NCBI GenBank assembly: GCA_009823395.1
Contig: CM020509.1
Span: forward strand, 21,489,501-21,553,500
Source: Thamnaconus septentrionalis
Lineage: Eukaryota; Chordata; Actinopteri; Tetraodontiformes; Monacanthidae
Direction: 5' to 3'
DNA length: 64,000 bases
The position numbers were made by a program, and so were the translations under genes. The notes beneath the pieces are model-generated. The model saw only the letters and a list, made by a program, of their open reading frames with translations, was not told the DNA's origin and ran no database searches. Numbering within the stretch: position 1 is the stretch's first letter; the number at the start of each line of letters is the position of its first letter. Shown piece after piece: positions 14,863-18,100 of the stretch.

Positions 14863-15140
14863 CTTCAATGTTGCTTCTCCTGTTCCTGTGGCAGACACTG
14901 TAATATTCTGGTTGATACTGTTGATCTGTCAAAAAATTGAAGACACTGTCCAATCAGCTAACAAACAGATGGTATTTATATCATTAGCTGTTAAGTGTTT
15001 GGTTAAGGGCTAGTGTCATCTTACTTTTAGCATCCTGGTTTGATAGTAGTTGTTACTGTTGAAGTTCAGCCGGACGTGCCTCAGCATGCCGGGCAATGCA
15101 ATACTGACTTCCAGGTTGGGTTTGGCTGAGCATTCTCTCG
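14863..15140 (-). CDS. C3-like exons 25-26: second half of CUB and start of MG8
   Basis: Exon 15025-15140 (reads CSAKPNLEVSIALPG) and exon 14863-14925 (reads ITVSATGTGEATLK) match the C3 segments directly after the thioester domain. Exon 25 starts in phase 1, the phase in which exon 24 ends, so skipping the lost exons keeps the frame. Exon 26 ends with a GTAAGC donor, but no further MG8 or C345C exon was found downstream. Reading through that donor would meet a stop after roughly 20 codons. Confidence 0.8.
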
Positions 15141-18100
15141 CTGTGCAAATGCACAAAATAAATGAATAAACAAATACTGTTATTACGCAACACTGCTTAA
15201 GCTTGTCAATATTTTTTTTTCCCCGCCACGCGACTCTGAGGCAATCAGGCAGTCAGATGTCACTTGTGTCCTCTTCATCACATGTGAGCCTGTTTTATTT
15301 GTCTGGCGTGTGCAACTGTGCCTGTTCTAACCAAGACACAGCGCAATCTAATTTCTCACCTGTCACCGAGATCTCCGTCATCGCAGGTGTGTCTGGAGAC
15401 AGTTCTGATGCTGGGATTGCACTGTTGAGAGTTTCGACTTGTTGACCAACTACATGGGCACAACAATAGTTTGGGTACCTACGAGCGTGTAATTGGTTGA
15501 CTCTGTCTCGCAAATGTGCTCCTTTAGACGGGTAAACTTACCAATGCCTTTATTAGCTGGGTCTAAAATGGCATTGATGACAGATTTGACTTGTGTTCCT
15601 GAAGGCTGGAGAGCACATGGCACAATGTCATTCTTTTTTTTTAATTTCCCTTCTGCCACTTACAACTTACATAACTTTAACACACAAGGTATGGGTATTT
15701 CCTTCTTTGTCCTCATTTTAATAATTATTTTTATTTTTTGCCAAATCCACCAACTAGCCAATCATTGGACATTCTGACAAACACTGCAAATCCTACTGCA
15801 TCTTTTATCGCTGCGATTGTTTTCCTCTTTTGTCATTCAAGGTGTCTCTTTGCCCAAGTCAGGTCGAGTAACTGTTTTACGTTCTTTTTTGTCCTCTAAT
15901 TTCATCCTCTCCTTCGGTGGAAGCACCTTTAGTTTCTCTTTGTACATGCAGACAAAAATAACGCTTAAGTTTTCTCTCTTACCACCACCCGCAGCATCTT
16001 CATAACTCCATCACTTAGCCAAGAATGTTTCACGGCAGCTTGGACCTCTATGGGAAATTTTCCATGCTTCATCGGAATGATGATGAAGGGCACAGCTCGT
16101 GTGGTTTGGCCACCAACACTTAATTCCTGCTGATACTTTCCACGCTTGGAGGCAGAGCTGCAAATACTTGATTCTGCGAGCAGATCCACACGTACCTTAT
16201 TGTTGAGACAGAGTTCAATGTCACTAATTTGATGTTGATTGTGACTGAAGTACTTGTCAAGGAGCTGAGAAAAGATTCAGCTCCTTCTCTGTCAGTGCTG
16301 GGTGCTGTTAGCCAACCTGGACCCGAGGAGTCAGCCAGACTTACGGTAATAGCGTCAGCCCCCAGGTTGTGGAGGATGGCCCTCACTTCAATCTGCTCTC
16401 CTCTGACAGCAGCGTAGGGCAGTCTGAGATCGATAAAGAACTCCTTGCGAACAATCACCTCTAACGGCTCACTGACACAGATACCTGAAATAAGGGAGGG
16501 ACACAAAACTATTTCACTATTTCCAATTTTACCCTTTGCCCCTCTCAATAGTTACATTGTGGTGCAGATTGCCCTGTCTCTCAGAGAAGTCATCGGCTCA
16601 AAATTATATTCCTTAATCTTGAAGCTTTGTTTCCTTATTTTTCACTACATTTCGCTGTTGTGTTTCACATTGATGCTTATTGTGGTACACAAGTCATCTG
16701 GGTTGATATTTCTTTGGGTTGTTGTTTCTGCTGGTTCTACACAAAAAGGCTGTTTGTCATTTTTAAACATGTCTTCTTCACAACTTTAGAATTATTTACT
16801 GCCGTTCAAACAACAGTTGAATCAAATCAAAGAAAAATGGTTGCCCTCCAAATTAATTGACCTCATGATTGATCAATTGATCGATTCCAAAAATAAACAA
16901 GAGCAGCGGGTCTATTTTGTTTCATGTTGTTCCAAAGGATTATGCTCCTTCTCCTCATGAAAGCACATAGAAAAAAACAACATATAATCGTACACTGCAC
17001 TACACTATCAGTAGCTAAATTGTGGTAAATTACATTAATGCCAAGTTTTAATTAATGGTTTGAGCATGACAAAAACACATGACAGTTGAGTATGTGGCAC
17101 GTAGAATCTTTAGAGAAAACAGGTATGATCTGCTTATGTAAACAAAACTCAACAAAAAACAAAACATAAGAAAATAAAACATCCCATTTCATCAGACTGT
17201 AAATCTAACTCTTGTATTTGGGGGAAAGATGAAGGATGGCATGTGTGATTGACCTGTGGGTTCAGTGTGAAAATTTATAGTTAGATGAGACTGTAACCAT
17301 TGAATTCTTACCGTGAGTCCTTGACAGGCTGATCCCAGTGAACTGCCAAGTCGTGATGGAGTCTTGCAAATGTATATCATTCAACTGTAGTGACCTAGTA
17401 AAACTAGGTCAAAGAAAGGAAAGTGACAGACTTTGTTTACACCCTCAGTCACATTGACCCTTTCCCCTCCCTTTGTGGTTTGAGCGCTAACTGATGGTGT
17501 GATGGACACACTGGTCACTGCTGCTTTGATTCAATGCACTTCAGTGTTTAGAAAGAAAAACAAAGAATTTGGTGGAATGACACAATCGCGGGTATACGAT
17601 CAAATGTGCTTGTGACCTGAATAGTACTTTACATGCTTGTCGTTCCTCCATCTTAGTTTTTTTTTTTTGGGGGAGTGTTGTGTCAGTTTGTGTTCTTTCT
17701 TTGTTTTTTGTTGTTGTTTTTGTTTTGTTTTTACCAGTTTGGCTTTTCCTGTGGGCAGCCAGAAGGTATTATGATATCCTTCCAAAGCCAACTTTCAGGG
17801 AATTTGCTGCGAGATGTTATGTCATCAACATAACTGTCATCTTCCTCTTGACCTTTGGCCAGACAAAAAAAAAGAGTGGACTGGAGGTATTTGAGCACAC
17901 ACTGGAGGTTAATGAAAATTAGCTGACAAATACATCAATGTCTTTATGTAAAGGTCTTTGTCTATTGCTATTGAAAGCCAAATATGCTGATTTTCATAAA
18001 AAAAAAAAAAAAAATTGGAATACAGACGTATGGTTTTTTTTTATAAAAATGATCTTGGCATCGCTAAGAAACTTTCACTTGTTTCTGTCAGTGCTTCTTA

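What the first reader, a model, noticed from the sequence alone, without database searches (positions are those of the whole stretch)
14863..15449. C3-like gene lacks exactly the thioester domain, with the frame kept across the junction
Exon 15360-15449 is the end of the first CUB half, and exon 15025-15140 is the start of the second CUB half. In C3 the thioester domain is inserted between them over several exons. Here only about 220 bp of intron separate them. The first exon ends in phase 1 and the second starts in phase 1, so a joined transcript would be in frame and would rebuild a continuous CUB domain without the thioester domain. Because all 26 recognised exons are undamaged, this could be an expressed C3 variant unable to attach covalently to targets, rather than ordinary decay.
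Basis: partly seen in the sequence, partly recalled or inferred. Interest (0 to 1): 0.82.

Follow-up and report, generated by a model that had tools for sequence, protein, structure and literature searches.

The report
Hybrid fish C3 gene missing TED
In what is probably a filefish genome, a broken copy of the immune gene C3 was stitched together from two neighbouring C3 genes; it has lost, in frame, the part that lets C3 stick to microbes and also lacks the tail end, so it is most likely a dying gene copy rather than a new kind of C3.

Summary
The junction is real. A C3-like gene (minus strand) has 31 exons with an open frame and a 32nd carrying an in-frame TGA (1204 codons). No thioester-domain (TED) sequence was found in the gene or in 20 kb on each side. 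Exons 24 and 25 join in phase 1. But this is not a C3 that lost one domain. Window 27418-15969 (upstream DNA, exons 1-22) is a young copy of a complete C3 gene, A, on contig C1 (1.7-2.3% substitutions, introns included). From intron 22 on, synonymous distance to A jumps from 0.02 to 0.71: exons 23-32 come from an older paralogue, most likely the tandem neighbour B, itself broken on C1. TED seems lost by a genomic deletion inside B: exon 25 appears to keep the acceptor and first codons of the first TED exon, fused to the second CUB half. The product also stops before C345C, for which no exon was found. The copied half has dN/dS of about 1 and has changed conserved residues that A kept. Best reading: an A-B fusion in a segmental copy, probably a young pseudogene. 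An expressed TED-less, C3a-bearing protein is not excluded. Likely host: a Thamnaconus filefish (inferred).

The parts
15969..27418 (-). Copy of the 5' half of gene A (about 1 kb upstream plus exons 1-22)
   Evidence: Two blastn blocks at 95.25 and 95.45% identity to C1:19465394-19476233; substitutions 1.7% upstream, 2.1% introns, 2.3% exons
26345..26412 (-). Exon 1, start codon and signal peptide region (9 bp shorter than in gene A)
18523..18591 (-). Exon 17 with the RRKR beta/alpha processing site
18102..18299 (-). Exon 18, anaphylatoxin (C3a) part, six cysteines, ends LILAR
   Evidence: Pfam ANATO E 4.8e-11
15983..16195 (-). Exon 22, last exon of gene A origin; the origin border is about 14 bp further on in intron 22
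9355..15968 (-). 3' part from an older paralogue, assigned to gene B (the stretch below 11010 is less sure)
   Evidence: dS 0.71 to gene A in exons 23-32; blocks 12222-12632, 11010-11241 and 9355-9767 match C1:19495948-19496992 at 96.1, 97.0 and 93.3%; only the first holds an exon (30), and 9669-9767 has a second match on C1, so the last may be a repeat
15542..15605 (-). Exon 23
15360..15449 (-). Exon 24, end of first CUB half, leaves phase 1
15025..15140 (-). Exon 25: second CUB half, apparently fused to the acceptor and first codons of the first TED exon; in-frame TED deletion
14863..14925 (-). Exon 26
11521..13885 (-). Exons 27-31, MG8 (13885-13804, 13678-13636, 12839-12749, 12619-12533, 11623-11521)
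   Evidence: Pfam A2M_recep E 1.1e-24
11322..11411 (-). Exon 32 with in-frame TGA at 11337-11335 in the CxC motif; no C345C exon found downstream
20229..20845 (.). Roughly 620 bp insertion in intron 14, absent from gene A; further copies at 44400-45025 and in L027

Best explanation
The window gene is a hybrid of two C3 paralogues that stand in tandem on contig C1; the hybrid sits on contig C9. A segment running from about 1 kb upstream of gene A to a point inside gene B before its C345C exons is represented on C9. Everything between A intron 22 and the matching place in B is missing there, probably by unequal recombination between the two paralogues (inferred). In the B half a deletion between the first TED exon and the second-CUB exon removed the TED; short AGAGA-like sequence at both sites may have helped (inferred). 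The join is in frame. The B half had been conserved for long (dN/dS 0.38 against A) but is now truncated by a TGA and has no C345C exon here; B on C1 is gutted too. Most likely the copy is a young unprocessed pseudogene. If transcribed from the copied upstream DNA it could give at most a secreted MG1-8/C3a/CUB protein that cannot attach covalently and lacks the C345C domain.
For: Origin border: exons 1-14 and 15-22 are 93.7 and 90.1% identical in protein to the Nelusetta C3 P0001, against 58-69% for the next best rows, while in exons 25-28 and the MG8 end P0001 has only 55.8 and 62.2% and is not the best by score. dS is 0.022 before and 0.71 after the border. Copy of A with introns and upstream DNA. 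96-97% match of two 3' blocks to B on C1, where no match to exons 15-29 was found. TED deletion inside exons: the tail of the 219 bp intron matches the end of gene A's intron before the first TED exon (score 28, best of 100 shuffles 26), and the exon starts with ARE where 128 of 214 fish proteins have GRE (36 gave no match to the pattern). Premature TGA, no C345C exon found. Neutral-like 5' half: 51 nonsynonymous to 14 synonymous differences, not different from random mutation (p 0.40), dN/dS 1.08. Copy-specific replacements hit sites conserved in at least 90% of 159 fish C3 in 8 of 30, gene A's in 0 of 17 scored.
Against: All 31 exons before the TGA are open, with AG/GT borders, and the 3 exonic indels between the copies (2 on the window side, judged by eye with P0001) are multiples of three; all intron indels taken together would predict about 6.7 on the window side. 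The 8 of 30 is itself below the 46% expected of random replacements (p 0.042), so some constraint may have acted. 29 window against 18 gene A replacements is not a significant excess (p 0.14). The TED deletion keeps frame (about 1 in 3 by chance). The acceptor match is short: with exon 25 added to the query, 3 of 100 shuffles reach its score, and exon 25 against gene A's second-CUB exon is not significant as DNA (7 of 100), only as protein. No transcript data. The order of events is inferred, and the origin of exons 23-29 from B rests on linkage and divergence, because no such B exon was found on C1.
Confidence: 0.75

Rival explanations
1. Expressed TED-less C3 variant: a secreted protein that can release C3a and act in fluid phase as decoy or signal, but cannot opsonise.
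For: Open frame through 31 exons; copied upstream DNA; RRKR site, C3a cysteines and LILAR kept; continuous CUB in frame. TED-less C3 architectures exist: the two cobra venom factor chains of 3frp match the product on each side of the junction, and a predicted Pagrus major isoform lacks TED.
Against: No purifying selection detected in the copied half; premature stop and no C345C exon found; replacement of V231, G602 and C788, each present in 98-100% of 159 fish C3.
Confidence: 0.12
2. Interlocus gene conversion: an old, already TED-less B gene on C9 had its 5' half overwritten by gene A.
For: Sharp border just after an exon, and collinear homologous exons on both sides.
Against: The similarity covers about 11 kb including 1 kb upstream, long for conversion (recalled), and the 3' end also matches C1 at 96-97%, which fits one segmental copy.
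Confidence: 0.08
3. Assembly artefact: reads of tandem C3 paralogues joined wrongly.
For: Tandem paralogues are hard to assemble; no reads were available.
Against: No gap in the gene; the C9 sequence differs from both C1 genes and carries its own 620 bp insertion; C1 holds separate A and broken B.
Confidence: 0.05

Closest known systems
Teleost complement C3 (tandem paralogues)
   Same: MG1-MG8, RRKR, anaphylatoxin and CUB parts; best match P0001 of the filefish Nelusetta, 90% identity over 91% of the query
   Different: No TED, no C345C, premature stop; two paralogues fused
Incomplete teleost c3 genes reported in PMC7768046 (sections 17 and 26 read, other passages seen)
   Same: Broken members of expanded c3 families, two annotated as pseudogenes in fugu
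   Different: Most of those lack the beta chain; the parts I read describe no TED deletion
Mature cobra venom factor and C3c
   Same: C3-like chains without TED: the gamma and beta chains of 3frp match the product up to about 2 residues before and from about 8 after the junction
   Different: There TED and C3a are removed from the protein by cleavage and C345C is kept (recalled); here it is a DNA deletion, C3a is kept and C345C is missing
Pagrus major predicted C3-like isoform X4 (P0169)
   Same: TED absent; both ends of the loss fall in similar places
   Different: C345C present, anaphylatoxin not detected, another fish; gene model only

Membership tests
Complement C3 | MG domains, anaphylatoxin and MG8 in C3 order | tested here: met
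   9 Pfam families in order
Complement C3 | TED with GCGEQ thioester | tested here: not met
Complement C3 | C345C (NTR) domain | tested here: not met
   five probes, best E 0.16 in window plus flanks, all five hit C1; Pfam
Complement C3 | beta/alpha processing site and C3a ending in Arg | tested here: met
   RRKR and LILAR in the translation
Unprocessed pseudogene | Introns kept and disabling changes relative to the parent | tested here: met
Unprocessed pseudogene | Neutral evolution since copying | tested here: inconclusive
   dN/dS 1.08, but only 65 exon differences, shared between both copies, and 8 of 30 is below the random 46%
Cobra venom factor-like protein | TED-less C3 fold that binds factor B through C345C (role recalled) | tested here: not met
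   TED-less: yes; C345C not found
Expressed TED-less C3 variant | Transcript joining exons 24 and 25 | not testable with these tools
   no RNA data on hand

The most novel reading that the evidence does not exclude
A filefish lineage built, by fusing two tandem C3 genes and cutting out the thioester domain in frame, a secreted C3 that still releases C3a and rebuilds a whole CUB domain but cannot attach to targets: a C3 used as fluid-phase signal or decoy. The predicted TED-less Pagrus C3 would then be a second, independent case.
Probability: 0.1. Interest if true: 0.72.

Novelty: new member of a known kind. Interest (0 to 1): 0.3.

Why it matters
It shows how a domain-exact 'design' can arise from ordinary deletions in a tandem array, and why open exons in a 2%-diverged copy do not show function. 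It gives concrete cases (this gene and Pagrus P0169) for asking whether any fish uses a TED-less C3. For annotation, the locus should not be called a functional C3.

Tried and rejected
Single-gene exon loss in one C3: rejected, because the two halves have different ages. Relocated TED exons near by: none found in the window and 20 kb each side, nor on C9 at the sensitivity. A decayed MG8 exon near 13.6 kb, seen by eye at first: rejected after tblastn placed the real exon at 12839-12749. Intactness as evidence of selection: judged weak after leaving out indels in simple repeats, which keeps 11 of 31 intron indels; with all indels it is stronger. Closer relatives of the B half among public proteins: 465 matches, best 120 listed, highest identity 62%. 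A FastTree of the 3' part with 35 hand-picked fish proteins puts it with P0001 (support 0.99) on a long branch, 0.45 against 0.05 in the tree of the 5' part. Papers: 21 held at least 4 of my C3/teleost/thioester/pseudogene terms, 20 listed, one opened; a search for TED-lacking wording found 68, of which the 15 listed titles are not about C3; a search on C3, gene conversion, tandem and pseudogene found only PMC7768046. Structure prediction was not run; I judged that a spliced model would probably not be accepted and would not decide function.

Full report
Organism. The window lies on contig C9 of a 474,147,460-base genome. Its C3 gene is closest to that of the filefish Nelusetta ayraudi. A review table gives a Thamnaconus assembly of 474.31 Mb with a 23.05 Mb value (passage seen, PMC11740861), and contig C10 here is 23,049,015 bases. 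The genome is therefore probably Thamnaconus septentrionalis (inferred; the table says T. modestus, its reference says T. septentrionalis).

The observation. On the minus strand, 28 exons from 26412 to 13636 form one open frame with AG/GT borders. Four more exons follow (12839-12749, 12619-12533, 11623-11521, 11411-11322), the last with an in-frame TGA at 11337-11335 after 1204 codons. Pfam finds MG1, MG2, MG3, MG4, the bait region domain, ANATO, A2M, C3_CUB2 and A2M_recep, but neither TED nor NTR, while P0001 has both. A TED profile built from 10 fish C3 finds nothing at E 1 or better in the window plus 20 kb on each side and 7 segments on C1. By tblastn, four TED and five C345C probes gave nothing better than E 0.17 and 0.16 there, and all nine hit C1 at E 1e-3 or better, in the 40 rows shown (a fifth TED probe was empty). 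In the whole genome the TED family gave 42 matches from 53 scored candidates, none on C9.

Two halves. In exons 1-14 and 15-22 the protein is 93.7% and 90.1% identical to P0001, against about 58-69% in the next best rows among 120 fish C3. In exons 25-28 and the MG8 end P0001 has only 55.8% and 62.2% and is not the best by score (the list for exons 23-24 was cut from view). At the DNA level, window 15969-27418 matches C1:19465394-19476233 in two blocks at 95.25 and 95.45% identity, introns and about 1 kb of upstream sequence included, interrupted by a roughly 620 bp insertion in the window. That C1 gene, A, matches P0001 along its whole length, with TED (motif GCGEQN) and C345C. Synonymous distance between the window and A is 0.022 in exons 1-22 and 0.71 in exons 23-32, with dN 0.27 and dN/dS 0.38 over 266 codons. 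The border lies about 14 bp into intron 22. Immediately after A, C1 carries the start of a second gene, B (C1:19488624). B there keeps recognisable exons up to 14, then jumps within a few tens of bases to the MG8 exon equivalent to window exon 30, followed by C345C-type matches at 19497959-19498712; no match to exons 15-29 was found between. Window blocks 12222-12632 and 11010-11241 match this B stretch at 96.1 and 97.0%, and 9355-9767 at 93.3%; only the first holds an exon, and part of the last has a second match on C1, so it may be a repeat. The window 3' half is therefore assigned to B. For exons 23-29 this rests on linkage and on similar divergence.

How TED was lost. The tail of the 219 bp intron matches the last part of gene A's intron before its first TED exon. 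The local score, 28, was reached by 0 of 100 shuffles (best 26), but by 3 of 100 when the query was the last 60 bp plus exon 25, so the match is short. Exon 25 then begins with the codons ARE where A has GRE and 128 of 214 fetched fish proteins have GRE (36 gave no match to the pattern), and continues directly into the second CUB half. That part is clear as protein (0 of 1000 shuffles; Pfam C3_CUB2 E 3.8e-7), though not as DNA against gene A (7 of 100). Gene A carries a similar Arg-Glu stretch at the second-CUB site (DREPDY), so a short shared AGAGA-like sequence may have guided the deletion (inference). Both ends thus seem to lie in former exons, and the result is one 116 bp fusion exon in frame.

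Is it functional? Over exons 1-22 the two copies differ at 65 of 2796 exon bases (2.3%), 148 of 6900 intron bases (2.1%) and 17 of 992 upstream bases (1.7%). The 65 exon differences are 51 nonsynonymous and 14 synonymous, dN/dS 1.08, not different from random mutation (p 0.40). With P0001 as outgroup, 29 replacements fall on the window copy, 18 on A and 2 are unclear (30 and 18 in the larger alignment); the excess is not significant (p 0.14). At sites where the ancestral residue is held by at least 90% of 159 fish C3, the window copy has 8 of 30 and A 0 of 17 scored (one A site dropped for low coverage), Fisher p 0.038; random replacements would give 46%. The window copy thus looks relaxed relative to A, though perhaps not wholly free (p 0.042 against random). 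Intact exons are weak evidence. Outside simple repeats, 11 of 31 intron indels remain, which predicts about 1.2 frameshifts in the copy (chance of none 0.30), and about 37 substitutions at 3.2% stops predict about 1.2 stops (my arithmetic). Against this, all intron indels together predict about 6.7 exonic indels on the window side, where 2 are seen, both in frame (of 3 between the copies, 9, 3 and 3 bp, sides judged by eye with P0001). Adding the TGA and the missing C345C, I judge decay more likely than function.

What it would do if made. It would have a signal peptide region, the RRKR site, a C3a domain ending LILAR and a continuous CUB, but no thioester and no C345C. C345C is named in the passages I saw of PMC4451739 as a site for properdin and, by modelling, for factor I; its role in binding factor B is recalled. 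Covalent opsonisation through a thioester is excluded by the missing TED.

Relation to known TED-less C3. The solved cobra venom factor gamma chain (252 residues) matches the product up to query residue 235 and the beta chain from residue 245, with the junction at about 237. TED-less C3 architecture is therefore known at the protein level, but there it is reached by cleavage and C345C is kept (recalled). Of 214 fetched fish proteins, one, P0169 of Pagrus major (a predicted isoform), lacks TED; it has C345C but no detected ANATO. A Pagrus relative with TED, P0185, has GDGEAN in place of GCGEQN. Broken c3 genes in fish are already described (PMC7768046, sections 17 and 26 read).

Verdict. The sequence observation is sound and the frame-keeping TED loss is real in this assembly. 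The gene is a hybrid of two C3 paralogues with a second truncation, most likely a young pseudogene (0.75). A working TED-less C3 remains possible (about 0.1) and could be settled with RNA reads.

Noticed in passing
window 35786-36273 and 40862-41349: Two 488 bp direct copies, 99.6% identical, flank ORFs with RT RNase H, integrase zinc-binding and Tf2-1 SH3 domains: a young Gypsy-type LTR element. Described only.
   Followed up: partly
window 29252-31588, + strand: ORF with SCAN and integrase domains, another LTR-type retroelement, followed by an ORF with reverse transcriptase.
   Followed up: partly
window 4935-6754, - strand; related copy 63008-63857: TRIM gene (RING, B-box, coiled coil, PRY/SPRY); an 887 bp stretch has an inverted copy 89.9% identical at the other end of the window.
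   Followed up: partly
C1:19488624-19498712 (L017, L030): Gene B on C1 is itself gutted: exon 14 is followed within a few tens of bases by a late MG8 exon, then C345C-type matches, apparently from two copies.
   Followed up: partly
proteins P0169, P0185, P0122: Percomorph C3-like proteins without a detected anaphylatoxin domain; P0185 and P0122 have a changed thioester motif (GDGEAN, GTGETN), and the P0169 model lacks TED.
   Followed up: partly
L028 (C9:21563501-21573500): Tandem array with a unit of about 910 bp, seen as evenly spaced weak hits.
   Followed up: no
gene A, about C1:19479821-19480375: Near the place where many other fish C3 read HGEMIGDVRG, gene A and P0001 read YAMSGTVT, so the catalytic His (motif recalled) may be missing although GCGEQN is intact.
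   Followed up: no
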